A stretch of 51,649 nucleotides of DNA from Paracoccaceae bacterium (GTDB lineage Bacteria > Pseudomonadota > Alphaproteobacteria > Rhodobacterales > Rhodobacteraceae), in NCBI GenBank assembly GCA_020832445.1, contig JAFIEO010000010.1, positions 1 through 51,649 on the forward strand, read 5' to 3'. The notes beneath the pieces are model-generated. The model was not told the DNA's origin and searched no databases. It saw only the letters and a program-made list of their open reading frames with translations. Below, piece by piece: positions 16,946-39,336 of this stretch (positions are counted from its first letter, which is position 1; every line of letters begins with the position of its first letter). The translations under genes and the position numbers were made by a program.

Positions 16946-17119
16946 AGCCCGCGCTATCGGTGGGCCGGGGTCTGCCGATCCGACGTTGGAGCAGTTCACT
17001 TTATGCCTGCTGCATACTCCCAAGATCATAGGCTTGGCGTGTCACTGGCCAAATCGGCAGGCCGCGGGACGGCCCGCCGATGGCGCGGCGGGCTGAAGCC
17101 CTTTGCTCCGCGCCTTGGG
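16946..17119 (+). repeat. Dispersed palindromic repeat, copy 1
   Basis: This is one of three copies of an intergenic repeat. The left arm, 16956-16979 (ATCGGTGGGCC..CTGCCGAT), and the right arm, 17053-17081 (ATCGGCAGGCC..CGCCGAT), are imperfect inverted repeats. Flanking AGCCCGC (16946) and GCGGGCT (to 17094) extend the stem. A conserved tail CCTTTGCTCCGCGCCTTGGG ends the unit. The preceding GGCCATG-AC-A block (16935-16945) is shared with copy 3. It fills the 295 bp gap between the convergent M20 and Sua5 genes; no other feature is seen there. Confidence 0.9.
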
Positions 17120-17147
17120 AAACTCCAACGCCACGCGAACTGAAGTT

Positions 17148-18128
17148 TTAACCTGATCCGGTCTCGTTCTGGCGCGGGGCTGCGGCACGGCGCAGCCTGT
17201 CATTGATGGCCAGCCCCAGCCCGCGTTCCGGCACAGGGGCCACGGCAATGGGGCGGCCTGTGGCATCGGCCATATGCAGAATCGCGAACAGTTGCGCTGC
17301 GGCTTCGGCCAGATCGCCCGTGGCGGACAGGTTGAAATCGGCGCCTGCGCAGTCCGGCCCGAAGCCTATCCAAACTTCAGTCCCTGCGGGGACAGCCGCG
17401 TTCAGGCGCACTGTCGCGCGCGGCGCATAATGCGATGCAAGCTGGCCGGGGGCCGTGATGGTGGCAGATTGTGTGGATGCAGGGATGTAGCCCAGCACAT
17501 CGGCCATCATCTCGGGGCTGATGCCACCTGCGCGCAGCACAACCGCGCGGCCCGTGTCATCTGTGCCGATGATGGTGGATTCCACACCAATCGGACAGGC
17601 CCCGCCATCCAGCACGGCGGCAATGCGCCCCGACAGGCCCGCCATAACATGCGCAGGCGTGGTCGGGCTGATCTGGCCGGACGGGTTGGCAGACGGTGCG
17701 GCAACCGGCCCGCCGAATTCAGCCAGCAGCGCCTGTGCCGCGGGGTGTGCGGGCATACGCAGCGCGACTGTGCCCAAGCCTGCGGTCACCGCAGGGGCCA
17801 GCCCGTGTGCCGCGTGCAACGGGGCCACCAGCGTCAGCGCACCGGGCCAGAACGCTTGTGCCAGCGCGCGCGCGGTCGGGTCCAGTTGCGCCAGTTCCAG
17901 CGCCGCGTCCAGTCCTGCAACATGCACAATCAGCGGGTTATGCGCGGGCCGCCCCTTGGCCGCGAAAATGGCGGCAATCGCTGCGGGGTTGCGCGCATCG
18001 CCCGCCAGCCCGTAGACTGTTTCCGTGGGCATCGCGACCAGTCCGCCACTGTGCAAAATGGTGCTGGCGCGGGAAATGCCCTTGGGTGTCGTGTCCAGTT
18101 GTTCGGTCTGATCATGTTCGGGCAGCAT
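17148..18128 (-). CDS. L-threonylcarbamoyladenylate synthase (Sua5 type)
   Basis: The 326 aa product has the YrdC domain, with VAMPTETVYGLAGDARN near residue 33, KGRPAHNPLIVHV, and PSANPSGQISPTTPAHV. A separate C-terminal Sua5 domain (about 225-326) follows, longer than TsaC proteins of ~190 aa. It makes threonylcarbamoyl-AMP from Thr, bicarbonate and ATP, the first step of t6A37 tRNA modification. No good ribosome binding site precedes ATG 18128, so the start is the least certain part. It is divergent from the acyl-CoA dehydrogenase. Confidence 0.95.
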   Translation of the reverse strand: MLPEHDQTEQLDTTPKGISRASTILHSGGLVAMPTETVYGLAGDARNPAAIAAIFAAKGRPAHNPLIVHVAGLDAALELAQLDPTARALAQAFWPGALTLVAPLHAAHGLAPAVTAGLGTVALRMPAHPAAQALLAEFGGPVAAPSANPSGQISPTTPAHVMAGLSGRIAAVLDGGACPIGVESTIIGTDDTGRAVVLRAGGISPEMMADVLGYIPASTQSATITAPGQLASHYAPRATVRLNAAVPAGTEVWIGFGPDCAGADFNLSATGDLAEAAAQLFAILHMADATGRPIAVAPVPERGLGLAINDRLRRAAAPRQNETGSG

Positions 18129-18258
18129 GTTGTGACGTGGCGTCCTTGTTTGGGAATCTGCGCCTGCGGGCTAGAACAACGTTCATAGGGTGGGCGATGC
18201 ATGTTGCCAAGTGTCGCGGCACCCGCAAAACAGTATCTGCACCTTGTCAGGAGGCCCC

Positions 18259-19965
18259 ATGCCCTACCGCGCCCCGCTTCAGGATTTCGGCTTTTTGCTG
18301 GATCATATCGTCGCCTTCGATCAGGTGCGCCAGACCGAACGGTTCGCCGAAGCCACGCCAGACACGACCAACGCCATTCTGACCGAAGCGGCGCGCCTGT
18401 GTGAAGCTGTGCTGCAACCTTTGCAGCGCAATGGCGATCTGCACCCGGCACGGCTGGAAAACGGGGTTGTGCGCACAGCGCCCGGCTATGCAGACGGGTT
18501 CCGCGCCATTGCTGAAGGGGGGTGGCTGGGTATTGCCGCAGATCCCGAATACGGGGGCATGGGCCTGCCGCAGACATTGGCGGTCGTGCTGAATGACATG
18601 ATGTCGTCGGCCTGTTTGTCGCTGGAATTGTGCCCGCTGATGTCGCAAGGCCAGATCGAGGCGCTGGAGCATCATGCCGATGACTGGATGAAGGCGCTGT
18701 ATCTGCCGAAACTGATTTCCGGTGAATGGACCGGCACCATGAACCTGACCGAACCGCAGGCGGGCAGTGATGTAGGTGCGTTGCGCAGCAAGGCAGACCC
18801 GCAACCGGATGGCAGTTTCCGTATTTCAGGGCAGAAAATCTATATCAGTTGGGGTGATCATGACATGGCAGAAAACATCTGTCATCTGGTCCTTGCCCGT
18901 CTGCCCGATGCCCCGCAAGGCACCAAGGGGATAACCCGGTGCATGGTGCCGAAATTCATACCGGATGCAGACGGCAATCCGGGCGCGCAGAACAGCCTGC
19001 GTGTGGTGTCGCTGGAACACAAGATGGGCCTGCACGGATCGCCCACGGCGGTGATGGAATATGACAATGCCACCGGCTGGATGGTGGGCGCCCCAAACAA
19101 GGGGATGGCCGCAATGTTCACAATGATGAACAATGCGCGCGTTGGCGTTGGCGTTCAGGGGATCGGGGCCGCCGAAGGCGCATTCCAGCACGCTCTGGCC
19201 TATGCGCGTGACCGCAAGCAGGGCCGCACGCCAACCAATGACACCGGCACCATCATCGAGCATGCCGATGTGCGCCGCATGCTGTCCATGATGAAGGCCG
19301 AGATTTTTGCCATCCGCGCCATTGCGCTGGCCAATAGCGTGGCCATCGATATGGCCCGCGCCACCGGGTCTGATGAATGGGCGGCGCGTGCGGCACTTCT
19401 GACCCCCATTACCAAGGCACAGGGCACCGATACCGGCATCGAGGTTGCAAGCACTGGGATACAGGTTCATGGTGGCATGGGTTTCATTGAAGAAACCGGC
19501 GCGGCACAGTTTCTGCGCGATGTGCGGGTAACCGCAATCTATGAAGGAACAAACGGGATTCAGGCCATGGACCTTGTCGGTCGTAAAATGATGGATGGTG
19601 GCGAGGCGGCATTCCGGCTGTTGCAGGAAGTCGAGGATTTTGCCGAATCCGCGCGCGGCCCCTTTCCCGACATGGCCGAAGACGTCTGGCAAGCCGCCGA
19701 AACGCTGCGCGAAACCACCGAATGGCTGGTCGCGCAGGATATGACAGACCGTGCCGCAGGGGCAGTGCCCTATCTGCGCGCCTTCGCCCGTGTTCTGGGG
19801 GCACATTACCACCTGAAGGCGGCCATTGAAGGGGACAGCGCACGTCAGGCGCTTGCGCGGGTGTTCATCACGCGCCTTCTGCCCGAACATGCGGGTTTGT
19901 TGGTGCAGGTACGTGCGGGTGCGGACGCGCTTTATGCATTGTCCGATGATGAACTGGCGGCCTGA
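18259..19965 (+). CDS. Acyl-CoA dehydrogenase, long form
   Basis: The 568 aa product has an N-terminal domain starting MPYRAPLQDFGFLLDHIV, the FAD/substrate segment GTMNLTEPQAGSDVGALRSK, SGQKIYISWGDHD, and the catalytic region AIYEGTNGIQAMDLVGRKM. An extra C-terminal domain (after ~residue 455) places it with the FadE-like long-form enzymes that oxidise acyl-CoA to enoyl-CoA. The open frame begins at 18190, but CAGGAGG at 18248-18254 sets ATG 18259. Its TGA overlaps the next ATG, so it is translationally coupled to the MBL hydrolase. Confidence 0.95.
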   Translation: MPYRAPLQDFGFLLDHIVAFDQVRQTERFAEATPDTTNAILTEAARLCEAVLQPLQRNGDLHPARLENGVVRTAPGYADGFRAIAEGGWLGIAADPEYGGMGLPQTLAVVLNDMMSSACLSLELCPLMSQGQIEALEHHADDWMKALYLPKLISGEWTGTMNLTEPQAGSDVGALRSKADPQPDGSFRISGQKIYISWGDHDMAENICHLVLARLPDAPQGTKGITRCMVPKFIPDADGNPGAQNSLRVVSLEHKMGLHGSPTAVMEYDNATGWMVGAPNKGMAAMFTMMNNARVGVGVQGIGAAEGAFQHALAYARDRKQGRTPTNDTGTIIEHADVRRMLSMMKAEIFAIRAIALANSVAIDMARATGSDEWAARAALLTPITKAQGTDTGIEVASTGIQVHGGMGFIEETGAAQFLRDVRVTAIYEGTNGIQAMDLVGRKMMDGGEAAFRLLQEVEDFAESARGPFPDMAEDVWQAAETLRETTEWLVAQDMTDRAAGAVPYLRAFARVLGAHYHLKAAIEGDSARQALARVFITRLLPEHAGLLVQVRAGADALYALSDDELAA

Positions 19966-21005
19966 TGGACGGTGCACCCAAATCAGGTTTGCGGTATCCT
20001 TTTCCCGCCCCGCCTGACGCGGGGCAGGTGATACCAGTTGCCGATGGGGTGTTCTGGGCGCGTCTGGCCCTTCCGATGGCGCTGGACCATGTGAATGCAT
20101 ATGTGCTTGATGATGGTGATGGCTGGACTGTCTTTGACACAGGGTTTGATGATTCTGCCACGCGGGATGCATGGACTGCCCTGCTGGCGGGGCCGTTGAA
20201 GGGCAAGCGGGTCCAGCGCGTGATCGCAAGCCACCATCACCCTGACCATATCGGCCTTGCTGGCTGGTTTCAGGCGCAGGGCGCAGAGTTGTGGACCACC
20301 CGCACCGCGTGGCTTATGGCCCGGATGATGGTGCTGGATGAACAGGACCGCCCGAACCGCGAAACGCTGGAGTTCTGGCGGCGTGTGGGCATGGACCCGG
20401 ACATTCTGGCGCAGCGCGCGACAGAACGCCCGTTCAATTTCTGCGACCGCGTTGCGCCCTTGCCCTTGGGCTATCATCGGGTCGCGGACGGGGATGTTGT
20501 GCATGCGGGCGCGCGCGACTGGGTGGTGCGGCTGGGGCAGGGCCATGCCCCTGACCAGATTACCCTGTGGTCAACAAGCTGCAATCTGGTGCTGGGGGCT
20601 GACCAGTTGCTGCCGTCAATTTCGGCCAATCTGGGGGTTTATGCGACAGAACCCGATGCCGATCCGGTTGCGGAATGGCTGGCCACCTGCGACGGGCTGA
20701 AGGAATTTGCGTTTGATGACCATTTGGTTTTGCCCGGCCACAAGCTGCCCTTCACCGGCCTGCCATTACGGTTGCGCCAAATGATCGAAAACCATCAGGG
20801 TGCATTGAAGCGCCTGCACGGGCATCTGGCCACGCCGCGCAAGGCGGGGGAGTGTTTTGCCCCCCTGTTCAAGCGCGAGATTACACAGGCGGTCTATGGG
20901 CTGGCGCTGGTCGAGGCGGTGGCCCATCTGAACCATTTGACAGCCACAGGCCGCGCGCGACGATGGGCAGACGCGGATGGCGTGTATTTGTGGCAGGCCG
21001 TTTAG
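19965..21005 (+). CDS. MBL-fold metallo-hydrolase
   Basis: The 346 aa product carries the metal motif [12 protein letters not shown] (H90-H92-D94-H95), further ligands in [12 protein letters not shown] and a late His in [14 protein letters not shown]. The C-terminal part (about 260-346) looks like the winged-helix extension of lactamase-B-like hydrolases, with [13 protein letters not shown]. It shares a transcript with the acyl-CoA dehydrogenase (ATGA overlap), which suggests a thioester or related ester as substrate; that is inference. Confidence 0.9.
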
Positions 21006-21096
21006 AAAACTTCGCGGCGAAGGTGGTGCAAGCAGGGGTGACAGATGCCGCGCGATATTATATCCGGTTCGGGAAACGAACGAACAGGAGCGCCTG

Positions 21097-21231
21097 ATGG
21101 CCAAACATGAACATGGTAAAATGGATATCCGGGAACAGGAAAAGACCTTTGCAGGTTTCATCCGTTATTCGGTATGGGTTACTGCGATTTCGATCGCTGT
21201 GTTGATCTTTCTTGCCCTGGCAAACTCCTGA
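21097..21231 (+). CDS. aa3-type cytochrome c oxidase subunit IV
   Basis: The 44 aa product, with [19 protein letters not shown] then one transmembrane helix (about 23-42), matches the very small fourth subunit of alphaproteobacterial aa3 oxidases. AGGAG at 21086-21090 sets ATG 21097; the longer open frame upstream is ignored. It is an accessory subunit not required for catalysis in model systems. It stands alone: no ctaC, ctaD or ctaE is in the window. Confidence 0.9.
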
Positions 21232-21284
21232 CGCCTATGTGCCCGTTTATGTATGGGTGATTGGTTCCTAAAAGAGGTTGGTCA

Positions 21285-21923
21285 ATGCCAGTAATCCTTA
21301 TGCCCTTGGGCTTTGTTCGGGGCATAATGCCGGTTGGCCTGTTGCTGGCCGCATTTTTGGTGCTGACCGCGTGTGCGGGGCAGCAAACATGGGCCAGTGA
21401 TGAAGCGGTGTCCGCCGCGCGCCATGTTCATGGCGGCGCACCGGAACTGACGCTTGTGACGATCATGCACCACAGGTCCGGCAACGGACATCACACGGCG
21501 CTGTTCATAAATGGTGCGGAGCGTGTGTTGTTCGACCCGGCAGGCAGCTGGCATCTGGAGGCAGCACCCGAACGCAATGATGTGCATTACGGCATGACAT
21601 CCGCTGTGGGCGCGTCCTTTTATCTTAGCCATGTGCGGGAAACGCATTATGCGGTGGTGCAGCGCCTGCGGGTCACCCCCGATGTTGCGGCACAGGCGAT
21701 GGCACTTGCGCAGCAGGCCGGACCTGTCGGACCTGCGCGATGCGCCATTTCCACATCAGCCCTGTTGCGGGCGCTGCCAGGATTCGATGGCATCAGCAGC
21801 AACTGGCACCCGCACCGCCTGATGCAGGATTTTGCGCAGCTTCCCGGTGTCATAACGGTGGAATTGCACCATGATGACCCGGATGTGCTGCGCAAGGCAT
21901 ATGCAGCGCAACAACCGCTATAA
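21285..21923 (+). CDS. Conserved lipoprotein of unknown function
   Basis: The 212 aa product has a lipoprotein signal: a hydrophobic stretch ending in VLTAC, with Cys 30 as the likely lipidated residue. The mature part contains HHRSGNGHHTALFINGAERV, then FDPAGSWH, and reads like a membrane-anchored globular domain; an NlpC-like or C39-like fold is conceivable because of a late Cys (PARCAIS) and His pair, but this is a guess. ATG 21285 follows AGAGG; the TTG upstream at 21261 is not used. Confidence 0.75.
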   Translation: MPVILMPLGFVRGIMPVGLLLAAFLVLTACAGQQTWASDEAVSAARHVHGGAPELTLVTIMHHRSGNGHHTALFINGAERVLFDPAGSWHLEAAPERNDVHYGMTSAVGASFYLSHVRETHYAVVQRLRVTPDVAAQAMALAQQAGPVGPARCAISTSALLRALPGFDGISSNWHPHRLMQDFAQLPGVITVELHHDDPDVLRKAYAAQQPL

Positions 21924-21967
21924 GCCACAGCGACGGGCATTTCGCACATATGCGCGACATGCCCGTA

Positions 21968-22477
21968 TCAGTCGGCCAGTGTTTCGGGCACGATCAGGCG
22001 GGTCTGATACTGTATCAACGGGGCAATGCGGCGCAGGCTGGCAGGCGACAGGCCAATGCATCCGGCCGTCGGAAAGCCCGGCCTGCGCCATTGGTGGATG
22101 AAGATGGCCGATCCCTTGCCGCGTTCCGCGCGGGGCCAGTTCCAACCCGTCAGAATGACCAGATCATATAGCGGGTCCGCGCGCCGCAAGCGTTCATGAC
22201 TGAACGGATAGGGCGCGCGCACCATCAGGTTATAATCTTCATGCGCGGGGTCGTCGGACCACAGGTCGCGCGGGCCAATCGGCATGGCCCAATCGGCAGG
22301 CTTCGCAATGCGGTCGGGCCTGTATAGCATACCCACCAGCCGATGCACGCCTGTGGGCGTTGCGCCATCACCTTCGCGTTTGTCGCTGCGCACGCCGCCG
22401 CGCCCGATGGTGCAGGGCCATGTCCGCCCCATGAAGCGCAGCCCCTGCCGTGTCAGAACCATATCGAAGCGTGTCAT
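21968..22477 (-). CDS. L,D-transpeptidase (YkuD) family protein
   Basis: The 169 aa product has an early [20 protein letters not shown] segment and the active site [18 protein letters not shown], where His and Cys fit the HX(n)-[ST]XGC YkuD pattern; the usual SHGC is TAGC here. No signal peptide is evident, so it may be cytosolic or exported by another route. Family members cross-link peptidoglycan or attach lipoproteins. Its ATG overlaps the ribA stop codon (ATGA), so the two are coupled. Confidence 0.88.
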
Positions 22478-23562
22478 AGAAAATGCCCTGATTTTGCCGC
22501 CTTGGTCGCCAGATAGGCGCGGTTTTCGGCGGTTTCGCCCACACGCAGCGGCACACGTTCCACAACGTTCAGGCCATTGTCGTTCAGCATGTCGACCTTG
22601 CGCGGGTTGTTGGTCAGCAGCCGCACCTGATGAAAGCCCATTTTGCGCAGCAATGCAGCCCCGATGCGGAAATCACGTTCATCATCTTCAAACCCCAGCC
22701 GGTGGTTTGCCTCGACCGTGTCGAACCCCTGATCTTGCAGCGAATAGGCGCGCATTTTATTGGCAAGCCCGATCCCGCGCCCTTCCTGGTTCAGATATAG
22801 CAAAACACCCGCCCCTTCATGGCCCATTTGCGTCAGCGCAGCCTGAAGTTGCGGGCCGCAATCGCATTTCAGACTGCCCAGAACGTCGCCCGTGAAACAG
22901 GCGGAATGCAGCCGCGCCAGCACAGGCGCCGCGCGGTCCGGTTTGCCGATTTCAATGGCGTAATGTTCCACCCCGCCATCGCGCGGGCGGAAAATATGCA
23001 CGCGCCCTGCCTGTGCAGCGGCCATGGGCAGGCGCGCGCTGATGACTGCGGAAAGGTCACTTTCGCGCGCCAGTTCGGTGTTCAGCTCCGCGATGGGCAA
23101 TTCGGTCAAGCCCGCATTTTCCACCGCCATAACATTGTCTAGGGGCAACACCAGTGCAGCGGGCAACAGTTGCGCTGATTTTGTCAGGGCAAGCGCTGCG
23201 CGGTGTAAATCTGCCGAACCGTCGCGTTCAGTGTGCAACGGTCCCTTCATCGGGTGGCGCAGGTCGTCGGCGGGGTCGGCCAGCGCGCGCACCCACGCCA
23301 CCTGTGCGCCTGCGGGCACAAGGACGCGCGCCAGATCACCATCATAGCAGCGTGCCTTCAGGGTGTCGGCGCGGTGCCGCGTCAATGCAAGAACCAGTGA
23401 CGGCCCCAGAACCTGCAATTCGGCCAGCCGTTCGGGCGTGGCCATTTCGGCGGCCAGAATAACTGCGGCAGTCACACCGTCACGCAAGATAACGGGAACG
23501 CCCAGCCGCAAATCCGCGCGGGCGCGGTTAATCAATTCCACTGGTGTCAGGCCAAGTATCAT
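22474..23562 (-). CDS. ribA: GTP cyclohydrolase II with extra N-terminal domain
   Basis: From about residue 175 the 362 aa product is a full GCH II: zinc ligands Cys222, Cys233 and Cys235 ([15 protein letters not shown]), then [27 protein letters not shown] and [12 protein letters not shown]. It starts riboflavin synthesis by opening GTP. The first ~170 residues resemble a RibB (DHBP synthase) fold in position and size but lack the acidic DRENEGD-type catalytic loop, so that half is probably inactive. The start is uncertain: ATG 23562 is taken, with in-frame ATG 23595 and GTG 23640 as alternatives. No FMN riboswitch is seen upstream. Confidence 0.9.
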
Positions 23563-23724
23563 GTGCCAATCCCGCTTCGCTATAGTCTTTGACATAGACC
23601 GATGGCAGGGAAATTGAAACATATTGCCCACATCCGACACGACCGCGTGAGTCTATTGTAGCAAATCTTGTCCTGCGGGCCTGCCCCTCACATTTATGAG
23701 AGAGAAAGAACAGGAGTATTTTCA

Positions 23725-24411
23725 ATGCCCAAACTGAACAAGGTGCTATTGGTCGATGATGACGATGACCTGCGCGAAGCGCTGTCTGAGCAACTGGTCA
23801 TGACCGATGAATTCGACGTGTTCGAGGCAGCGAACGGGGCCGAGGCCATGGAAAAGGTTCGCGCAGGCCAGTTTGATCTGGCGATACTGGATGTGGGCTT
23901 GCCCGACACGGATGGACGCGAATTGTGCAAGCGTATGCGCAAGGCGGGCTTCAAATCGCCGGTCATCATGCTGACAGGGCATGATTCGGATGCCGACACC
24001 ATTCTGGGGCTGGATTCGGGGGCGAATGATTACATCACCAAACCGTTCAAGCTGCCGGTTCTGCTGGCGCGTCTGCGCGCCCAGCTGCGCCAGCACGAGC
24101 AATCGGAAAACGCGGTGTTCCAGCTTGGTCCCTATCTGTTCAAACCGGCGCAGAAAATGCTGATTGACGAAAATGACCGCAAGATCAGGCTGACCGAGAA
24201 GGAAACCAATATTCTGAAATTCCTGTATCGCGCGCCCGAAGGTGTGGTGCCGCGCGATGTGCTGCTGCACGAAGTGTGGGGCTATAACGCGGGCGTGACA
24301 ACGCATACGCTGGAAACCCATATTTACCGCCTGCGCCAGAAGATTGAACCGGACCCGTCCAACGCAAGCCTGCTGGTGACGGAATCAGGGGGCTATCGTC
24401 TGGCCGCGTGA
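23725..24411 (+). CDS. cenR: OmpR-family response regulator, CenR-like
   Basis: The 228 aa product has a receiver with VLLVDDDDDLREAL, phospho-Asp 56 (AILDVGLPDTDGRE) and TKPFK, then a winged helix with RLTEKETNILKFLYRA and YNAGVTTHTLETHIYRLRQK. This agrees closely with my memory of CenR of Caulobacter and Rhodobacter, an essential regulator of envelope and division genes. The kinase partner CenK is not in the window. CAGGAG precedes ATG 23725. It is divergent from ribA and ends in its own terminator. Confidence 0.75.
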   Translation: MPKLNKVLLVDDDDDLREALSEQLVMTDEFDVFEAANGAEAMEKVRAGQFDLAILDVGLPDTDGRELCKRMRKAGFKSPVIMLTGHDSDADTILGLDSGANDYITKPFKLPVLLARLRAQLRQHEQSENAVFQLGPYLFKPAQKMLIDENDRKIRLTEKETNILKFLYRAPEGVVPRDVLLHEVWGYNAGVTTHTLETHIYRLRQKIEPDPSNASLLVTESGGYRLAA

Positions 24412-24501
24412 ATACCGCGAACAGGCCCTATTGTTGCCAAATTCCAGCGCAATAACGGGATCAAGAAGCGATTGTTCTTCTTTTCCTCCTCCCCTCCCTC
24501 T

Positions 24502-24533
24502 GGTCCGGACATTGTGTCCGGACCTTTTTCTTT
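24502..24533 (+). terminator. Terminator after cenR-like gene
   Basis: GGTCCGGACA pairs with TGTCCGGACC, ten perfect base pairs around TTG, followed by TTTTTCTTT. It lies 90 bp after the stop codon and 66 bp before xthA, so it separates the two transcripts. Confidence 0.9.
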
Positions 24534-24598
24534 GCGGATCAGGGTTGTCGTGCGCGCGTGCACTGTGCATGAAGGGGGCAGTCAGCCGGAGATTTCTT

Positions 24599-25387: not shown

Positions 25388-25416
25388 GGGCTGCGTTCGA
25401 CCACGCGCAGGGGTTG

Positions 25417-26671: not shown

Positions 26672-26766
26672 ATGATTGGGGCGCATCTGGAACCTGATCC
26701 GATCAGGTTGCATCATGCGGTTCATGGGTGGTTTTGGGTCTTTTGCCGCCCTTCACGCTTGGATAC

Positions 26767-26940
26767 AGCCCGCGCCATCGGTGGGCCGGGGTCTGCCGAT
26801 CCTACGTAAGTGAAGTTCACTTTATGCAGGCTGCATATCCCTTACTTCGAAGGCTTGGACTGCCATCAGCCAAATCGGCAGGCCGCGGGACGGCCCACCG
26901 ATGGCGCGGCGGGCTGCGCCCTTTGCTCCGCGCCTTGGGG
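26767..26940 (+). repeat. Dispersed palindromic repeat, copy 2
   Basis: This copy has the best arm pairing. The left arm is 26777-26800 and the right arm 26874-26902; the outer GCGCCATCGGTGGGCC and GGCCCACCGATGGCGC are exact reverse complements over 16 bases. The tail CCTTTGCTCCGCGCCTTGGG is identical to copy 1. The centre carries TGCAGGCTGCA and an inner GTAAGTGAAG/CTTAC pairing. It lies in the 484 bp gap between convergent rluA and the DEAD-box gene; 26672-26766 and 26941-27054 show nothing else. Confidence 0.92.
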
Positions 26941-27054
26941 CTTTTCGATGTCTGCAAAAGGCCAGAATCAACCAGCCTTGCGATTCCATTTTACATGACA
27001 CTGCTATAGCGCGCGTCGCGGTCATTTGCATTTATGTGACCCACTCTGACCTTG

Positions 27055-27112: not shown

Positions 27113-27116
27113 GCAT

Positions 27117-29871: not shown

Positions 29872-29931
29872 GTCGTTCCCTTTCGCAGGTGGTGTGGCGA
29901 TATAGGTGCAGCGCCCCGTCGGGGCAACAGG

Positions 29932-30867: not shown

Positions 30868-30872
30868 TGGCC

Positions 30873-31160: not shown

Positions 31161-31225
31161 GTTGTGCTCCGTTTTGTGATCTTTGGGCAGTGGAATTACT
31201 GCGGCAATGCGTTACATTCGTCACT

Positions 31226-31783: not shown

Positions 31784-31795
31784 TAAAGGGGCGGG

Positions 31796-34630
31796 ATGCA
31801 AGCAAGGGGTTTGCGGATGAATATTCGCGCAAATGCGCGCACGGTTGCCGTGCTTGGCCCCACCAATACCGGCAAGACCCATTACGCCATTGAACGTATG
31901 CTTGCGCACAGAACGGGGGTCATCGGTCTGCCGCTGCGCCTGCTGGCGAGAGAGGTGTATGACCGCATTCTGGCGCTGCGCGGCCCCGATTGCGTGGCAT
32001 TGGTGACAGGAGAGGAGCGTATCGTTCCCGACCGCACCCAATACTGGGTTTGCACTGTCGAGGCGATGCCAATCGAGATTGGCGCCGATTTTGTTGCCGT
32101 GGATGAAATCCAGTTATGTGCGGACCCTGATCGCGGGCATGTGTTTACCGACCGTTTGCTGCATGCGCGGGGCTTGCATGAAACATTGTTCATGGGGTCG
32201 GACACAATGCGTTCGGCGATTGCAGCACTGGTGCCGGGCGTGCAGTTCCAACGGCGTGAACGGCTGTCGCAACTGACCTATTCGGGGTCCAGAAAAATCA
32301 GCCGGATGCCGCCGCGCAGTGCCATCGTGGGCTTCAGTGTCGAGAATGTCTATGCCATTGCCGAGCTGATTCGCCGCCAGAAGGGCGGTTGTGCGGTTGT
32401 CATGGGCGCATTGTCGCCGCGCACCCGCAACGCACAGGTTGCGCTGTATCAAAATGGCGATGTCGATTTTCTGGTGGCAACCGATGCAATTGGCATGGGG
32501 CTGAATCTGGACATCAAGCATGTGGCGTTTTCGGCCACGCATAAATTCGACGGCCACCGCATGCGCCCCCTGAACCCTGATGAACTGGCGCAGATTGCCG
32601 GTCGCGCAGGGCGCTATCAGACAAGCGGCAGTTTTGGCGTGACCGGCGAGGCACGGCCTTTGGCCGACGAGGTGATTTCCGCAATCGAGAATCATGAATT
32701 CCTGCCCGTGCGCAAATTGCAATGGCGCAACGGGCGGCTGGAATTCGGCACGGTTGCACGGCTTATCGCGTCGCTGGAGCACCAGACGCAGAATGAATGG
32801 CTGACCCGTGCGCGCGATGCGGATGATCTGACCGCGTTGAAAACCCTTGTTGCGCAACCCGAAACGCTGGACCGGCTGACCAGCCCGCGCGATGTGCGTT
32901 TGCTGTGGGATGTGTGCCGCATACCCGACTTTCGCGGCATTTCAGCGGCGGAACATGCAGGGCTGCTGGCGCGCGTGTTCGAGTTTTTGCAAGGCAGCGG
33001 GCGGATCGCGCCGGACTGGCTGGCGCGCAACATCCAGCGCATTGACCGCACCGATGGTGACATTGATGCATTGTCGCGCCGATTGGCGTATATCCGCACA
33101 TGGACATATATTACACAGCGCAAGGGTTGGGTTGATGACGAAAAGCATTGGCGCGCCGCCTCGCGCGCTGTAGAAGACCGTTTGTCGGATGCATTGCATG
33201 ACCGGCTGACGCAGCGATTTGTTGACCGGCGCACCTCGGTGCTGATGCGGCGGTTGAAGCAGAAGGAGAGCCTTGTGGCTGACGTGAACGACAAGGGCGA
33301 AGTGACTGTTGAAGGTGAACTGATCGGACGGCTGGAAGGCTTCCGTTTCCGGCAGGACAAGACCGACAGTCCGGATGAAGCAAAGACATTGCGTCAGGCG
33401 TCGATTTCCGCGCTGGTGCCGTTATTCCATCTGCGGGCCGACAAATTCTATAACGCCCCCGATACCGAATTCGACTTCACCGAACAGGGTGGGTTGATGT
33501 GGGGCGACACGGCGGTCGGCAAGCTGGTCAAGGGCGATGACCCCATGCGCCCGCAGATCACGGCCTTTGTCGATGATGAGGCGGGCCATGACGTGGCAGA
33601 AAAAGTGCGCCGCCGTTTGCAGCATTTCATGGATCGCAAGATTGCCGCGTTGTTTGAACCGCTTTTGAACATGTCACGCGATGAAACCCTGTCGGGGCTG
33701 GCGCGCGGTGTGGCGTTTCAACTGGTCGAGGCGATGGGTGTGATCCCGCGTGAACAGATCGCACAGGACATCAAGGCGCTGGATCAGGATGCGCGCGGCA
33801 TGTTGCGCAAGCATGGCGTGCGTTTCGGGCAATACACGGTTTTCCTGCCGCTGCTGTTGAAACCCGCGCCCACGCGGCTGCGTCTGGTGCTGAAATCCCT
33901 TGCCGAAGGGCTGGATGAATTCCCCGAAAGTCCGCCAGCGGGTCTGGTGACAATCCCGCATCTGTCGGAAATTCCATCGGCACATTACAGCATGTCAGGC
34001 TACCGCCCCGCCGGTGCGCGCGCGATTCGCATCGATATGCTGGAACGGCTGGCCGATTTGCTGCGCGGCTGTGACAGCCGTGCAGGGTTCGAGGCAACGC
34101 CGGATATGCTGTCGATTACCGGCACCACGCTGGAGCAATTCGCCGACATGATGCAGGGGTTGGGCTATGCCGCTGAAAAGGGTGAACGCCCCAAGGTGAA
34201 GGCCGAACCTGTGCAGCCGCCGGTTGACAGCACTGCGGATGCGCCCGAAGCGCCTGCCGCAGAAGATACCGCAGCCAGCGCGCCCGCAGATGCCGACATC
34301 CCCGATGCGCCCGCCGCAGCAGATGCAGATACCCCTGCGGCCGAGCCGAAAGGCGCTGATAAGCCCGAGGACCAGATCGAGCTGTTCTATACTTTCACAT
34401 GGGCACCCCGCCCCCGCCGCGACGCGCGCCCTGCGCGCAAACCACAGCAGGCGGACGCGCGCGGTGATCAGCGCAAAGGGCAGGGGCAAAAGCCGAAAAC
34501 CGGCAAGCCCAAGGGCAAGAAGCCCGAAAACAAACCCCGCGACTACAGTGCAGGCCCGCGCAAATCCGACCGTATTGACCCCGACAACCCCTTTGCAGCC
34601 GCACTTATGGGGCTGAAAACCAAGGGCTGA
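31796..34630 (+). CDS. SUV3-like helicase with disordered C-terminal tail
   Basis: The 944 aa product begins with Walker A GPTNTGKT (21-28) and motif II DEIQ (103-106); SATHKFDG and QIAGRAGRYQTSG serve as motifs V/VI. DEIQ and this layout match SUV3-type RNA helicases, known in mitochondria and alphaproteobacteria. A long middle region follows, then residues ~800-944 of Ala/Pro/Asp then Lys/Arg-rich low complexity ending AALMGLKTKG. ATG 31817 is an alternative start. It is followed 6 bp later by the S4 gene, suggesting RNA degradation or ribosome work. Confidence 0.9.
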   Translation: MQARGLRMNIRANARTVAVLGPTNTGKTHYAIERMLAHRTGVIGLPLRLLAREVYDRILALRGPDCVALVTGEERIVPDRTQYWVCTVEAMPIEIGADFVAVDEIQLCADPDRGHVFTDRLLHARGLHETLFMGSDTMRSAIAALVPGVQFQRRERLSQLTYSGSRKISRMPPRSAIVGFSVENVYAIAELIRRQKGGCAVVMGALSPRTRNAQVALYQNGDVDFLVATDAIGMGLNLDIKHVAFSATHKFDGHRMRPLNPDELAQIAGRAGRYQTSGSFGVTGEARPLADEVISAIENHEFLPVRKLQWRNGRLEFGTVARLIASLEHQTQNEWLTRARDADDLTALKTLVAQPETLDRLTSPRDVRLLWDVCRIPDFRGISAAEHAGLLARVFEFLQGSGRIAPDWLARNIQRIDRTDGDIDALSRRLAYIRTWTYITQRKGWVDDEKHWRAASRAVEDRLSDALHDRLTQRFVDRRTSVLMRRLKQKESLVADVNDKGEVTVEGELIGRLEGFRFRQDKTDSPDEAKTLRQASISALVPLFHLRADKFYNAPDTEFDFTEQGGLMWGDTAVGKLVKGDDPMRPQITAFVDDEAGHDVAEKVRRRLQHFMDRKIAALFEPLLNMSRDETLSGLARGVAFQLVEAMGVIPREQIAQDIKALDQDARGMLRKHGVRFGQYTVFLPLLLKPAPTRLRLVLKSLAEGLDEFPESPPAGLVTIPHLSEIPSAHYSMSGYRPAGARAIRIDMLERLADLLRGCDSRAGFEATPDMLSITGTTLEQFADMMQGLGYAAEKGERPKVKAEPVQPPVDSTADAPEAPAAEDTAASAPADADIPDAPAAADADTPAAEPKGADKPEDQIELFYTFTWAPRPRRDARPARKPQQADARGDQRKGQGQKPKTGKPKGKKPENKPRDYSAGPRKSDRIDPDNPFAAALMGLKTKG

Positions 34631-34636
34631 TCGCGG

Positions 34637-35020
34637 GTGTCTGAACTGGCCACCCGCGACACAATCCGTCTGGACAAATGGCTGTGGCACGCGCGGTTTG
34701 TCAAAACCCGGTCGCTTGCCGCCAAGCTGGTGTCGGGGCCGGGGGTGCGGGTGAATGCTCTGCCGGTGTCGAAACCAGCGGCGCAGGTGGGCGCCGGTGA
34801 TGTGCTGACATTTGCCTTGGGGACGCGTGTTGTCGTGGTGCGGGTGTTGGCATGCGGTGTGCGTCGCGGCCCCGCACCTGAAGCGCAGGCGCTTTATGAA
34901 GATATGTCGCCCCCGCCGCCGCCCAGGGATTTGTCGCGCCCCGTGCCCGTGGCTGGCGGGCGGCCTGACAAACGCGACCGTCGCCGATTTGCCGCATCTG
35001 CACCGGATCGGCTTGATTGA
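34637..35020 (+). CDS. S4-domain RNA-binding protein (Hsp15-like)
   Basis: The 127 aa product starts with GTG and has the S4 domain IRLDKWLWHARFVKTRSLAA (residues ~9-28) and VSGPGVRVNALPVSKPA. This is the Hsp15 (HslR) type that binds stalled 50S subunits carrying nascent chains. The C-terminus is basic (DKRDRRRFA). It is 6 bp behind the helicase gene. Confidence 0.92.
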   Translation: MSELATRDTIRLDKWLWHARFVKTRSLAAKLVSGPGVRVNALPVSKPAAQVGAGDVLTFALGTRVVVVRVLACGVRRGPAPEAQALYEDMSPPPPPRDLSRPVPVAGGRPDKRDRRRFAASAPDRLD

Positions 35021-35105
35021 TCGCATGTGCTGGATTATGTCCCCCATCAAATGCGTGTGCGCCTTGCGGGGCAGGCATTGAATTCAGACAGAAGGACCGG
35101 ATCTG

Positions 35106-35444
35106 ATGACATATGTGGTGATCGACAACTGCATTGCGTGCAAATACACCGATTGCGTGGAAGTTTGCCCTGTCGATTGCTTCTATGAGGGCGAGAATAT
35201 GCTCGTCATTCATCCGGATGAATGCATCGATTGCGGTGTTTGTGAACCGGAATGCCCCGCAGATGCCATTCGGCCCGACACCGAACCCGACATGGAAGAC
35301 TGGGTCGAGTTCAACCGGAAGTATTCGGAAATGTGGCCGGTGATCATCACGAAAAAAGACCCGCTGCCTGATGCGGCGGATCGGGATGGTGAACCCGACA
35401 AGCGCGACAAATATTTTTCCGAAAACCCCGGCGAGGGTGGCTGA
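35106..35444 (+). CDS. fdxA: 7Fe ferredoxin FdxA
   Basis: The 112 aa product holds cluster ligands C9, C17, C21 and C40, C43, C46, C50 with [20 protein letters not shown], the 3Fe-4S plus 4Fe-4S type FdxA/FdII. The C-terminal half, with [13 protein letters not shown], is the extra helical part of this family. It is an electron carrier, essential in several alphaproteobacteria. It lies 85 bp after the S4 gene. Confidence 0.96.
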
Positions 35445-35505
35445 TACAGTCCTTGGTGTCGCAGCGTTTTTTGCCCGCCATTTACGGGTTTCCAATCATG
35501 TCACT

Positions 35506-35533
35506 TTGATTCGTGGCATTTTTGTGATATAGA
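35506..35533 (+). promoter_or_regulatory. Candidate promoter between fdxA and carD
   Basis: TTGATT and TATAGA are 16 bp apart. A transcript from ~35540 would hit the terminator at 35562-35589 almost at once, or read through into carD. Confidence 0.45.
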
Positions 35534-35561
35534 ATCAGAAGAATATGAAACTGTCCCGAAC

Positions 35562-35589
35562 CGGCAGGGCCGTTACCTGCCGTTTTTTT
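35562..35589 (+). terminator. Terminator or attenuator upstream of carD
   Basis: CGGCAGG pairs with CCTGCCG around a 7-base loop, followed by TTTTTTTG. It ends fdxA transcription or, given the promoter-like site upstream, a ~50 nt leader or small RNA. Confidence 0.8.
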
Positions 35590-35672
35590 GTCCGCAAGTT
35601 CCAGATGCTTCAGGAAAATTTTCCTGACGTGTTCTTTTTTGCGCGATTCCGGGGCCTGTAGGGGAAAACTGA

Positions 35673-36182
35673 ATGTCCAAAACCAAAAAGTCCGAGTTTC
35701 GCCCGAATGAATATGTGGTCTATCCTGCCCATGGGGTTGGCCAGATCGTTTCGATTGAGGAACAGGAAATTGCCGGTCTGAAACTGGAACTTTTCGTCAT
35801 TTCCTTCGAGAAGGAAAAGATGACATTGCGCGTGCCGACCCACAAGGCCGCGACTGTGGGCATGCGCTCGCTTTCGTCGCCTGAAATTGTGGACAAGGCA
35901 CTTGCAACGCTGAAGGGCAAGGCCCGCGTGAAGCGTGCAATGTGGTCGCGCCGCGCGCAGGAATATGAACAGAAGATCAATTCCGGCGATCTGCTGGCCA
36001 TTGCAGAAGTGGTGCGCGACCTGCACCGCAATGACGACCAGCGCGAACAATCCTATTCCGAGCGGCAGTTGTATGAAGCCGCACTGGAACGTCTGACCCG
36101 CGAAGTCGCGGCCGTGGCCGGCGGGGACGAGGCGATTGCGCAAAAGCAGGTCAGCGATGTCTTGGTGTCGCGCGCTGCGTGA
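35673..36182 (+). CDS. CarD family transcription regulator
   Basis: The 169 aa product starts MSKTKKSEFRPNEYVVYPAH with the CarD/TRCF RNA polymerase-interaction domain (1-60, including GVGQIVSIEEQEIAGLKL) and a helical C-terminal DNA-binding part with KRAMWSRRAQEYEQKINSGD. CarD/CdnL binds the RNAP beta subunit and stabilises open complexes, notably at rRNA promoters. Conserved order with fdxA is recalled for this family of bacteria. It has its own terminator. Confidence 0.95.
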   Translation: MSKTKKSEFRPNEYVVYPAHGVGQIVSIEEQEIAGLKLELFVISFEKEKMTLRVPTHKAATVGMRSLSSPEIVDKALATLKGKARVKRAMWSRRAQEYEQKINSGDLLAIAEVVRDLHRNDDQREQSYSERQLYEAALERLTREVAAVAGGDEAIAQKQVSDVLVSRAA

Positions 36183-36204
36183 CCTGACGCCAATGTCGTG
36201 AAAG

Positions 36205-36229
36205 CGCCCGCATCAGCGGGCGTTTTTAT
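36205..36229 (+). terminator. Terminator after carD
   Basis: CGCCCGC pairs with GCGGGCG around ATCA, then TTTTTATT; 7 bp stem, 24 bp after the stop codon. Confidence 0.88.
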
Positions 36230-36347
36230 TGCGCAGGCCGGTTCTACATAGTGCTGGCCGTCCTTCATTACCCAGTGCAGGGCTTGCCTAGCCCCCGCGC
36301 CCTGGATTATGAAACCCCGATAACCAGCATAATACCGGAGTTCACAG

Positions 36348-37088
36348 ATGGCAGGCCATTCCAAATGGGCCAATATCCAGCATCGCAAGGGCCGTCAGGA
36401 TGCGGTGCGTGCGAAGCTTTTTTCCAAACTGTCCAAGGAAATTACCGTGGCCGCCAAAATGGGCGACCCGGACCCTGACAAGAACCCGCGCCTGCGTCTG
36501 GCCGTGAAAGAGGCCAAGGCCGTTTCCATGCCCAAGGACAATATCGAGCGCGCGATCAAGAAATCGCAAGGCGGCGATGCGGAAAACTACGATGAAATCC
36601 GCTATGAGGGTTATGGCCCCAACGGCGTTGCAATCATTGTCGAGGCGATGACCGACAATCGCAATCGCACCGCGTCAAACGTGCGGTCCACATTTTCCAA
36701 GAATGGTGGCAATCTGGGTGAAACCGGATCGGTGGCTTTTATGTTCGACCGCAAGGGCCAGATTTTCTATCCGGCCAGTGTGGGCGATGCCGATACCGTA
36801 TTGCTGGCCGCGATTGATGCCGGTGCCGAAGACGTGGAAAGCAACGAAGACGGGCATGTCATCTGGTGTGCCGATACTGACCTTGCGGCCGTGTCATCCG
36901 CGCTGGAAGATGCCTTGGGCGAGTCTGAAAGCACCAAACTGGTGTGGAAGCCGCAGACCACCACAGAACTGGATCTGGATGGGGCGCGGACGCTGATGAA
37001 GCTGATTGATGCGCTGGAAGATGATGACGATGTCCAGAACGTCACGGCGAATTTTGAAATCTCGGACGAGGTGATGGCCGAATTGTAA
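36348..37088 (+). CDS. YebC/PmpR family protein
   Basis: The 246 aa product has the family start [19 protein letters not shown], then [20 protein letters not shown] and [16 protein letters not shown], and three visible domains. Members act as transcription regulators or, as recently shown, in relieving ribosome stalls at prolines. No terminator separates it from the convergent EamA gene 4 bp away. Confidence 0.96.
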
Positions 37089-37092
37089 GGCG

Positions 37093-38016
37093 TTATTGCG
37101 CGCCCGTCCTTTTGTGGTCGGGCGCGGCAGCCGCGCGCCTTGCTTGCTGGCGCAGGCGTGCTTCGCGCACGGTGATGAACAGCACCGACCCCATGATCAC
37201 CCCGCCGCCAAGAATGACAAACAGGTCAACGGCTTCGCCAAAGGCGATTGCGCCCAGCAACACCGCCCAGACAAGTTGCAGGAATGTGACGGGTTGTGTC
37301 ACGGTAATGGGCGCGGCAGCAAAGGCCAGTGTCATGGCAAAATGCCCCCCCGTCGCAAAGGCCGCGACCCAGAACAGCCAGAATATTTGCGTCCATGTGG
37401 GCGGCACCCATACGACCCACGCAAAGGGCGCCAGAAAAACAGTGACCGTGATGGACAACATTCCCACCACCACTGCGGCATTCACCTGACCTGACATGCG
37501 CTTGGCCATCAGATAGGACGCGGCAAACAGGATGGCTGTTCCGATCATGGCAATATGTCCGCTGGACACTTCGCGCAGGCCGGGGCGCAGGATGATCAGC
37601 GCCCCAATAAAGGCCACCAGCACGGCCAGAATGCGGCGCATGGCCAGTTTTTCGCCCAGAAACAGCGCGGCCCCCAATGTGACATAGATGGGCGACAGGT
37701 AGTTCATTGCCGTGACCTCGGCCAAGGGAATGCGGGTCATGGCATAGAACCACAAGATAACCCCCAACGCATGCAGGAACCCGCGCAGGGTGAACATGGT
37801 CATGTTCTGGCGCGTCATGGTCAGTGCGCGCAGCGATGGCAGCATGGGCAGCAAAAACACCAGCCCCAGCGCATAGCGCAAAAACGCTGATTGTGCCGCA
37901 GGCATATCATCGCCCAGATACTTGACCAGCGCAGTGACCGCGACAAAGCAAACGCCGGTCACCAGCATCCAGAAAATGCCAAGCAGGGGGCGGGATGTGG
38001 CAGGGGTATTTATCAT
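37093..38016 (-). CDS. EamA/DMT-family permease
   Basis: The 307 aa product has about ten hydrophobic segments in two EamA repeats: residues ~12-150 (GIFWMLVTGVCFVAVTALVK) and ~155-290, the second containing GAIAFGEAVDLFVILGGGVI. It is a drug/metabolite transporter superfamily exporter of unknown substrate. The C-terminus is basic. ATG 38016 fits the family start; the longer frame is ignored. A GTGCAA-N4-TTGCAC palindrome abuts the start codon. Confidence 0.92.
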   Translation of the reverse strand: MINTPATSRPLLGIFWMLVTGVCFVAVTALVKYLGDDMPAAQSAFLRYALGLVFLLPMLPSLRALTMTRQNMTMFTLRGFLHALGVILWFYAMTRIPLAEVTAMNYLSPIYVTLGAALFLGEKLAMRRILAVLVAFIGALIILRPGLREVSSGHIAMIGTAILFAASYLMAKRMSGQVNAAVVVGMLSITVTVFLAPFAWVVWVPPTWTQIFWLFWVAAFATGGHFAMTLAFAAAPITVTQPVTFLQLVWAVLLGAIAFGEAVDLFVILGGGVIMGSVLFITVREARLRQQARRAAAAPDHKRTGAQ

Positions 38017-38032
38017 GTGCAATATCTTGCAC
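38017..38032. promoter_or_regulatory. Inverted repeat at the EamA gene start
   Basis: GTGCAA-TATC-TTGCAC is a perfect 6+6 palindrome next to the start codon of the permease gene and in the intergenic region shared with the hydrolase. It could be an operator or a start-blocking hairpin. A weak promoter-like pair TTGCGC-16 bp-TATAGC (38175-38202) lies nearer the hydrolase. Confidence 0.35.
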
Positions 38033-38257
38033 GACCTGCGGGTGCAGACAAGGAAAATGGCAGCGCCGTGCACCGGTTGATCGTCCGGCTGAGTGGCCTT
38101 GTGTGCCGTTGGCTGGGCCGCATGCGTATGTTCTGCGGTCTTACACATTATTGGCGCAGATGCTTTTGCAAAGCTTGCGCCGCCCGCGCTGATGCCTATA
38201 GCCTGCGGCCCATGCGCGGCGCATCATGGATGCGGCCACACGAAACAAGGGGAAGAC

Positions 38258-39091
38258 ATGCAAGACCGCACCGGTATTGACTGGACTGATGCATTTGCCA
38301 ACCGGCCTTATATTTATCAGGCGGACAGCTATCCCGCAGCATGGGCCACTTGCGCGCAGCTGTTTCGCGATACCGTGCAGGGTGCCCGTCTGAATATGCC
38401 CTATGGTACGTCCCCGCGAGAGGTGTTTGACCTGTTTGCACCCGCCAGCGCCCCGCCCAAGGGGGTGATGGTTTTTGTACATGGCGGCTACTGGATGGCG
38501 TTTGACAAATCCCATTGGTCCCATCTGGCCCAAGGGGCACTGGCGCAGGGATGGGCTGTTGCGATGCCGCAATACAGTCTGGCCCCCGATGCCGGAATTG
38601 ACCAGATGACAGTCCAGATTGGCCGCGCCATCACCGAAGTGGCGCAGCATGTGGCCGGCCCCATTGTTCTGGCGGGCCATTCGGCGGGTGGACATCTGGT
38701 GACGCGCATGGTTTGCGAAGATGCGCCCGTGTCGCCCGATGTGCAGGCCCGCATTCGCCATGTGCTGTCGATTTCCGGCCTGCACGACCTGCGCCCGCTG
38801 CAAATGACGGCGATGAATGCAACATTGGGCCTGACAGAGCAGATTGCGCAACGCGAAAGCCCCGCGCTTCTGCGTCCGGTGGGCGGGGTTGCGGTGACGG
38901 CATGGGTCGGGGGGCATGAACGGCCGGAATTCCTGCGCCAGTCCGCCTTGTTGCGCGAGGCATGGTCGCGGTGCGGCGTGCCGGTGCGGCTGGTGGTGGA
39001 TGACGGATTGCATCATTTCAATGTCATTGACGGGTTGGCCGACGCGGGCAGTAAGTTGACCTGCGCCCTGCTGCAACTGCCCGAGGGGTAG
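38258..39091 (+). CDS. Alpha/beta hydrolase (arylformamidase-like)
   Basis: The 277 aa product has the oxyanion motif HGGYW (75-79), nucleophile elbow GHSAGG with Ser142, and late HHFNVID with the probable catalytic His. HGG[YW]W plus GHSAGGH resembles kynurenine formamidase-type esterases; no other tryptophan pathway gene is nearby, so a general esterase is equally possible. ACAAGGGGAAG precedes ATG 38258. Confidence 0.88.
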   Translation: MQDRTGIDWTDAFANRPYIYQADSYPAAWATCAQLFRDTVQGARLNMPYGTSPREVFDLFAPASAPPKGVMVFVHGGYWMAFDKSHWSHLAQGALAQGWAVAMPQYSLAPDAGIDQMTVQIGRAITEVAQHVAGPIVLAGHSAGGHLVTRMVCEDAPVSPDVQARIRHVLSISGLHDLRPLQMTAMNATLGLTEQIAQRESPALLRPVGGVAVTAWVGGHERPEFLRQSALLREAWSRCGVPVRLVVDDGLHHFNVIDGLADAGSKLTCALLQLPEG

Positions 39092-39162
39092 CTGAACCTG
39101 TGCTGGTTGAAATGGCCCGTTTTTGGGGGGCGGTCTTTTGCTGAAGTTGAGGCCATGGACAA

Positions 39163-39336
39163 AGCCCGCGCCATCGGTGGGCCGGGGTCTGCCGATCCGG
39201 CGTTTGAGGGATGCAGTTTATGCAGGCTGCATACTCCTTAATTGAACAGCTTGGCGTGCCACCAGAGTAATCGGCAGGCCGCAGGACGGCCCGCCGATGG
39301 CGCGGCGGGCCTCGCCCTTGATGCCGCGCCTTGCGG
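39163..39336 (+). repeat. Dispersed palindromic repeat, copy 3
   Basis: The left arm is 39173-39196 and the right arm 39270-39298. The preceding GGCCATGGACAA (39151-39162) matches copy 1. The centre again has TTTATGCAGGCTGCATA, then diverges; the end tail is CCCTTGATGCCGCGCCTTG, the least conserved tail. It fills much of the 379 bp gap before the amino-acid transporter genes; 39337-39470 holds only the SBP leader, with no clear promoter. Confidence 0.9.

What the first reader, a model, noticed from the sequence alone, without database searches (positions are those of the whole stretch)
16946..39336. Undescribed family of ~175 bp palindromic intergenic repeats
Three copies (16946-17119, 26767-26940, 39163-39336) share arms, order and a conserved 3' tail, all in the same orientation. 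The outer arms pair with each other over ~33 bp. Each right arm also folds alone, with stems ATCGG/CCGAT and GGCC/GGCC, so a single long hairpin and a multi-arm fold are both possible. No gene is inside. This fits a non-autonomous MITE, a REP/BIME-like element or an abundant structured RNA. Presence and structure are seen; the family being new is only what I could not match from memory.
Basis: partly seen in the sequence, partly recalled or inferred. Interest (0 to 1): 0.78.

Follow-up and report, generated by a model that had tools for sequence, protein, structure and literature searches.

The report
Palindromic repeats that swap and flip
The three repeats belong to an apparently undescribed family of roughly 170-letter hairpin elements found in many members of one bacterial family; at fixed places in the genome one copy is often replaced by another copy in random orientation, which suggests a way for such repeats to stay alike without a known jumping enzyme.

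Summary
The copies are real. The host genome has about 120 (122 places at >=52 bits by my count). Full-length relatives occur in 101 of 244 genomes of the order, 52 of 100 genera; in a class-wide sample of 289 only the host matched. A long hairpin is supported by covariation (20 of 36 pairs change on both sides over 69 sequences). No Rfam family matches. No RAYT and no transposon with these ends was found in the host.

Unexpected: of 32 orthologous sites in G000 and G020, 31 are occupied in both. Thirteen hold best-matching copies, all in the same orientation; 18 hold an unrelated copy, 11 of them inverted, although flanks stay 80-99% identical. Elements prefer convergent gene ends without sense bias. 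In several genera a copy sits between pheS and pheT, in either orientation.

Best reading: a REP/MITE-like family whose copies overwrite each other in place. Replacement is shown; the mechanism is inferred.

The parts
16946..17114 (+). copy 1, conserved core
   Evidence: inverted and different copy at the orthologous G020 site
26767..26934 (+). copy 2, conserved core
   Evidence: inverted and different copy at the orthologous G020 site
39163..39330 (+). copy 3, conserved core
   Evidence: same orientation and 96.3% identical at the orthologous G020 site
16925..17141 (+). copy 1, longer cassette as matched by the G000-based profile (outer ends degenerate)
26732..26966 (+). copy 2, longer cassette with outer inverted ends (TTTTGC at 26741-26746; GCAAAAGGCCA at 26954-26964)
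39132..39351 (+). copy 3, longer cassette (outer ends degenerate)
26770..26788 (+). copy 2, left outer arm of the hairpin (L1), complementary to 26891-26909
   Evidence: sequence; helix 1
26793..26800 (+). copy 2, left inner arm (L2), complementary to 26874-26881
   Evidence: sequence; helix 2
26874..26884 (+). copy 2, right inner arm (R1)
   Evidence: sequence; helix 2
26891..26909 (+). copy 2, right outer arm (R2)
   Evidence: sequence; helix 1
26911..26921 (+). copy 2, small tail hairpin GGGC...GCCC
   Evidence: sequence; helix 3 (9 of 69 sequences have the compensatory G-C/C-G exchange at one pair)
26695..26737 (+). flanking repeat shell B beside copy 2
   Evidence: E 7e-9
26960..27003 (-). 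flanking repeat shell A beside copy 2
   Evidence: E 3.9e-12

Best explanation
A family of palindromic, strongly hairpin-forming intergenic elements of Rhodobacteraceae (core ~170 nt; ~240-nt cassette in G000/G020), REP/MITE-like in number and placement but without RAYT in the host. SHOWN: the family, its covarying hairpin, its preference for gene 3' ends, and that at fixed sites one copy is replaced by another in either orientation, the site's flank often running unchanged to TGGCCT and the cassette changing from there inward. INFERRED: the replacement is ectopic recombination between copies (gene conversion or gap repair), started when the long palindrome is extruded and cut during replication (SbcCD-type processing, general knowledge). 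Because both ends of a copy read inward the same way, a broken site can be filled from a donor in either orientation, so no transposase is needed for turnover. INFERRED: the host tolerates the element, and at pheS-pheT may use it, as an orientation-insensitive hairpin in transcripts or DNA; it is not an intrinsic terminator. My odds: family real 0.97; replacement in place 0.85; recombination between copies as its cause 0.5.
For: 122 places in the host; 101 of 244 genomes. Covariation: 94.2% of cells paired against 83.9 shuffled and 33-46 slid; 233 cells changed on both sides against 67 shuffled. Of 32 sites, 31 occupied in both G000 and G020; 13 hold each other's best match among the copies held, all same orientation; 18 hold a copy no closer than unrelated ones, 11 inverted (Fisher p=0.0004, 11:7 fits random orientation). 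By eye 14 of the 18 replaced sites keep the flank up to a TGGCC-like junction at one end or both. Partial swaps: L019 and C33:150157 keep the core and change both ends, L012 differs in an inner patch. One likely donor pair: in G020 the copies at sites L019 and L022 are 95.5% identical, and at L022 the copy is inverted relative to G000. No clean empty site among the 32. No Y1 transposase in the host.
Against: Recombination normally needs longer homology than the short outer ends, and the swap reaches those ends instead of stopping in the longer inner arms. Only ~35 of ~120 copies per genome were compared, so donors are unknown for nearly all swaps. In more distant G017, 8 of 20 mapped sites hold no element (3 of these with only one flank found), so gain or loss also happens. 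4 of the 18 replaced sites hold truncated copies in G020, so their identities rest on 46-143 positions. The outer ends are clear in only 1 of 9 G017 copies printed and in 0 of 39 relatives' flanks (35 distinct loci), so the end-based argument cannot be applied to other genera.
Confidence: 0.5

Rival explanations
1. Site-specific mobility by an unidentified enzyme: cassettes excise and others reinsert at the same GGCC-centred sites in either orientation, or lineages independently receive insertions at the same hot sites.
For: Sharp junctions at TGGCCT on both sides with a palindromic GGCC centre; complete exchange including the tails; sites shared even across genera at pheS-pheT.
Against: 18 swaps but no clean empty site among 32; mosaic swaps; no transposon with the ends in the host; no recurrent helper gene recognised among the 14 largest gene clusters beside elements.
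Confidence: 0.3
2. A functional structured RNA or cis-acting RNA element of the family, kept for example in the pheST operon, that was amplified SINE-like in some genera.
For: Covariation; G.U cells outnumber A.C cells 94 to 22 (50 to 21 without the two largest contributors), favouring folding of one strand; five g46 genomes and G239 keep the copy at pheS-pheT with element identity 72-89% while 26 of 30 comparisons of the adjacent 60 nt fall below 40%; the conserved unit has sharp limits there.
Against: No conserved upstream stretch that could be a promoter in the six pheS-pheT loci (by eye); no sense bias (17 sense, 20 antisense); both orientations at pheS-pheT; both strands fold almost equally well. 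Transcription was not tested.
Confidence: 0.17
3. Assembly artefact: the draft G000 contigs hold wrongly placed copies.
For: G000 is a 99-contig draft, and at least 14 of the listed elements lie within about 250 nt of a contig end.
Against: Swapped cassettes differ from the junction inward, directly beside unique flank; G020 has 6 contigs; G017 and the pheS-pheT site in other genera also show inversions.
Confidence: 0.02
4. Simple in-place inversion between the element's own arms, followed by ordinary divergence.
For: Long inverted arms; such inversion is reported for Correia elements (passage in PMC10969869).
Against: None of the 11 inverted copies keeps ortholog-level identity (74-83%), while 10 non-inverted ones keep 92.7-98.7%.
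Confidence: 0.03

Closest known systems
REP / BIME / REPIN with RAYT (TnpA-REP)
   Same: High-copy palindromic intergenic repeats, vertically persistent; an origin by gene conversion was proposed for REPs (Higgins 1988, seen only as a title in reference lists).
   Different: REPs are 20-40 bp (abstract start of PMC3733652); this core is ~170 nt. No RAYT in the host, 1 of 20 multicopy genomes.
MITEs, in particular Correia elements of Neisseria
   Same: Small, no gene, terminal inverted ends in G000/G020; Correia elements are reported to invert (passage in PMC10969869).
   Different: No autonomous parent with the same ends, no target duplication established; inversion here comes with replacement by another copy.
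RIME, Bru-RS and enterobacterial RU elements
   Same: Palindromic intergenic repeats of about 100-170 nt (RU sizes from the abstract start of PMC2759123; the rest recalled).
   Different: Other taxa; not compared by sequence here.
Rfam RF02600 BASRCI27
   Same: It came up in the search of a copy's locus.
   Different: The weak match (26.3 bits, cut-off 59.8) lies beside the element in another repeat, not in it.

Membership tests
REP/REPIN-RAYT | A RAYT (Y1 transposase, PF01797) in the genome | tested here: not met
   0 in G000 at E<=0.001; over the cut-off in 1 of 20 multicopy genomes, G189; G020 has one match below the cut-off
REP/REPIN-RAYT | 20-40 bp unit | tested here: not met
   conserved unit ~170 nt; size of REPs from the abstract start of PMC3733652
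MITE | Terminal inverted repeats | tested here: met
   TGGCCTTTTGCGGTCATT or TGGCCTGAAGC at many G000/G020 copies; 41 matches, reversed control 0. Not seen in other genera
MITE | Target-site duplication | tested here: inconclusive
   GGCC stands at both ends of many cassettes, but no clean empty site was found to compare
MITE | Autonomous parent with the same ends | tested here: not met
   40 of 41 end matches in G000 abut or overlap an element, one (C36:65612) stands alone; only one end form and only G000 searched
Structured RNA family | Covarying secondary structure | tested here: met
Structured RNA family | Transcription of a defined RNA | not testable with these tools
   no expression data
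Known Rfam family | Match on the element | tested here: not met
Intrinsic terminator | T-run after the hairpin | tested here: not met
   TTTT within 14 nt: 0 of 101 on the 3' side, 2 of 101 on the other
Correia / RIME / Bru-RS | Sequence relation | not tested
   no reference sequences were fetched

The most novel reading that the evidence does not exclude
An ancient host-maintained hairpin element, best kept between pheS and pheT, gave rise to a bacterial SINE-like family that persists without any transposase: copies break at their own palindrome and are refilled from any other copy in random orientation, so that sites, not sequences, are inherited.
Probability: 0.2. Interest if true: 0.85.

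Novelty: new variant of a known kind. Interest (0 to 1): 0.64.

Why it matters
Bacterial intergenic repeats are usually explained by a transposase, acting or lost. Here the number of elements, the fixed sites and the random reorientation at those sites can be read from close genomes, so the old idea that such repeats evolve by gene conversion becomes directly testable. The family also gives ~120 dispersed, foldable, orientation-neutral marks in one genome, and a candidate functional copy between pheS and pheT.

Tried and rejected
RAYT-driven REP: rejected for this genome. Known Rfam RNA: rejected; the one promising match (BASRCI27) lies beside the element. Autonomous parent with the same ends: not found in G000. 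Intrinsic terminator: rejected. Simple in-place inversion without replacement: disfavoured. A recurrent helper gene beside elements: of the 14 largest clusters looked at by eye, those I could name were pheS/pheT and their neighbours; the rest looked like host genes or spurious frames and were not searched further. Conserved sites other than pheS-pheT across genera: none clear in the loci held, some one-sided matches not followed. Empty sites in G017 were sought for insertion footprints but could not be aligned to the base. Plasmid collection: 5 records, of which 2 nearly full length. Nine paper searches listed no description of this family; I saw listings with abstract starts, and passages by term in PMC3116915, PMC8049555, PMC10969869 and PMC3733652, no whole paper.

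Dropped before counts: L010 from the alignment; L001, L005, L010 and the three C33 copies L006, L017, L021 from the pooled flanks (L001 and the C33 copies were compared in the other set; L005 and L010 were not compared with G020). Of 101 long elements, 91 could be placed between two called genes; two loci in that sample are held twice (L150 = L202, L157 = L228).

Full report
Observation. The window holds one three-copy family at the coordinates given. Searching the host genome (G000, 4.08 Mb, 99 contigs; the window is contig C83) with copy 2 gave 40 matches, all of the 40 candidates that were scored out of 163. A sequence-only model built from 25 copies (A1) gave 148 rows. By my count of the listing, 122 places score 52 bits or more, 4 are weaker partial places, and 22 are reverse-strand echoes of the palindrome. 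Only 150 of 3710 first-look candidates were scored, so ~120 is a lower bound, although two pairs of contig-end pieces may be the same DNA. That is one copy per ~33 kb.

Extent. The core (AGCCCGCGCC...CCGCGCC) is embedded in tails that end in inverted repeats, TGGCCTTTTGCGGTCATT or TGGCCTGAAGC.... A pattern search for the first form gave 41 matches and 0 in the reversed control; held against, 40 of the 41 abut or overlap an element. Outside these ends lie further flanking repeats: with seeds taken from these very sites, 30 of 70 flanks at 35 sites scored as shell A or shell B, and 7 sites have A on one side and B on the other, with the cassette in one orientation at 4 and the other at 3. In ~741 kb of contiguous sequence the shells were found beside elements, the two exceptions at E<0.01 being separated from an element or remnant by another repeat. 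The long ends belong to G000 and G020: they are clear in 1 of 9 G017 copies printed, and in 0 of 39 relatives' flanks (35 distinct loci). In genus g46 conservation starts at CAAGCCGCGC and stops at CCGCGCC.

Family. By DNA search 19 of 60 genomes match, the host included, all labelled the same genus. With the model, 101 of 244 genomes of the order match at E<=1e-5, in 52 of 100 genera; 11 candidates per genome were scored, so copy numbers are not counts. In a class-wide sample of 289 genomes only G000 matched; 9 candidates per genome were scored with stricter filters, three listed same-family genomes had none, and the kinship of 268 unlisted genomes was not shown. Contig lengths identify G017 as Roseinatronobacter sp. 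HJB301 (178,811, 221,764 and 480,647 bases). G020 is probably Roseinatronobacter sp. S2, a plasmid of which carries copies (inference).

Structure. On 69 chosen relatives (A2) the consensus is one long hairpin plus a small tail hairpin. In the pair count 94.2% of cells pair (shuffled 83.9, slid 33-46); 20 of 36 pairs have a change on both sides (shuffled 11.9); 233 cells do (shuffled 67); the covariation score is 0.264 (shuffled 0.090). None of 500 shuffles reached any of these values; relatedness inflates that control, and the structure was derived from the same alignment. In the hairpin G.U cells outnumber A.C cells 94 to 22; without the two pairs that contribute most it is 50 to 21. That moderately favours folding of this strand, as RNA or single-stranded DNA. 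Against it, consensus and single-copy folding energies of the two strands are nearly equal. Without covariation-tuned scoring the base of the hairpin competes with a tail stem.

Turnover at fixed sites. For 8 sites in contiguous stretches and 24 sites located with pooled flanks, G000 was compared with G020. Of 32 sites 31 are occupied in both; at L014 G020 has other DNA. Identities fall into groups. Ten copies are 92.7-98.7% identical and three more (86.5-88.3%) are still the best match among the G020 copies held; all 13 have the same orientation. The other 18 are 73.1-84.0% identical, the level of unrelated copies (median 79.3% within G000), and none is the best match held. Eleven of these 18 are inverted (0/13 against 11/18, Fisher p=0.0004; 11:7 fits random orientation). 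Flanks of the replaced sites are 93-99% identical, except C33:211863 (85/91) and L022 (97/80); L002 and L011 have one flank only. Four replaced sites (L002, L009, L030 and window copy 1) hold truncated copies in G020, so their identities rest on 46-143 positions. At 14 of the 18, by eye, the flank continues to a TGGCC-like junction at one end or both and the cassette changes from there inward; the other four have degenerate ends or differ only further in. Partial swaps exist: L019 and C33:150157 keep the core and change both ends; L012 differs in an inner patch. One likely donor pair was found: in G020 the copies at sites L019 and L022 are 95.5% identical, and at L022 the copy is inverted relative to G000. 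In G000 the copies L014 and C33:211863 are 97.9% identical.

In the more distant G017, of 20 mapped sites 10 hold an element (4 same, 6 inverted), 2 a short remnant and 8 none, 3 of those 8 with only one flank found. Of the window's three sites two are empty there and one has a remnant. No clean empty site between G000 and G020, together with 18 swaps, argues against independent insertion; mosaic swaps argue for recombination between copies. The step that starts it is not shown.

Placement. Gene calls here are my own rough ORF calls. In G000 and G020 stretches 11 of 22 placed elements lie between convergent genes against 73 of 436 intergenic regions in all (orthologous sites are counted in both genomes). 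Those calls missed the true neighbours of window copies 1 and 2, which are convergent too. Among relatives 47 of 91 lie between convergent genes against 49 of 368 regions without an element, 7 of 91 between divergent genes against 81 of 368, and in tandem contexts 17 are sense and 20 antisense. Many of these loci were found through the tail pattern, the g46 loci are orthologous, and two loci are held twice, so this is not a random sample. The element is not an intrinsic terminator: TTTT follows in 0 of 101 and 2 of 101 cases.

pheS-pheT. In five genomes of genus g46 and in G239 the copy lies in the pheS-pheT interval (genes named from their sequence by recall), with collinear flanks. Element identity is 72-89%; the adjacent 60 nt on each side are 9-70% identical, 26 of 30 values below 40. 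Of 30 genomes probed with PheT, four carry a copy there (G239, G080, G187, G072). Only ~1.5 kb beside the match was held, so more distant copies would be missed; G092 of g46 and the host G000 showed none. Roseovarius aestuarii (L194) also has it, and Alterinioella (L176) has one near pheT. Orientation is antisense to pheST in g46, g92, g80 and g37 and sense in g43 and Roseovarius. In G187 and G072 it is the only match that one search lists. So a site is shared across genera while orientation differs. Whether this is one old insertion or several is not shown.

Verdict. The family is real and, as far as Rfam and nine paper searches reach, undescribed. It works like REP/BIME repeats but fails the RAYT test; of the MITE features one is met, one not met and one inconclusive. 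Replacement of copies in place with random orientation is the main finding. A gene-conversion origin of REPs has been proposed before and Correia elements are reported to invert, so this is a new variant of a known kind.

Noticed in passing
L002:1684-1855; G000 C33 near 28.2 kb and 48.5 kb; flanks of L018 and L026: A second repeat (GAGCATG...GGGAACCGG...CATGCTCTAA), weakly like Rfam BASRCI27 (26.3 bits, cut-off 59.8); at C33 28.2 kb it stands between shell A and an element remnant.
   Followed up: partly
G000 contigs C3, C4, C5, C6, C15, C25, C28, C67, C68, C74, C89, C91, C92, C95: At least 14 listed elements lie within about 250 nt of a contig end, so the repeats break this assembly.
   Followed up: no
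L134:1535-2098 (G149): Tandem array of about four element units, period 153.
   Followed up: partly
L104 (G017, site of L015): Two elements in a row in the same orientation at one site.
   Followed up: no
L084 and L102 (G020 at sites L009 and L030): Elements with the interior deleted and outer parts joined, as expected from slippage at a hairpin.
   Followed up: no
G000 C33:150157-150387 and its G020 ortholog: Both outer ends changed together (TGAA...TTCA against TTTT...AAAA) while the core stayed ~95% alike; why both ends change together is unexplained.
   Followed up: partly
window 19516-19565 and 50970-51019: Two 50-nt stretches 80% alike, probably an IYEGTNGIQ-like motif of two acyl-CoA dehydrogenase genes (motif recalled, not searched).
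   Followed up: no
L152:5381-5432 (G097): Match to Rfam ffh sRNA RF01793, 66.8 bits, above its cut-off of 35.
   Followed up: no
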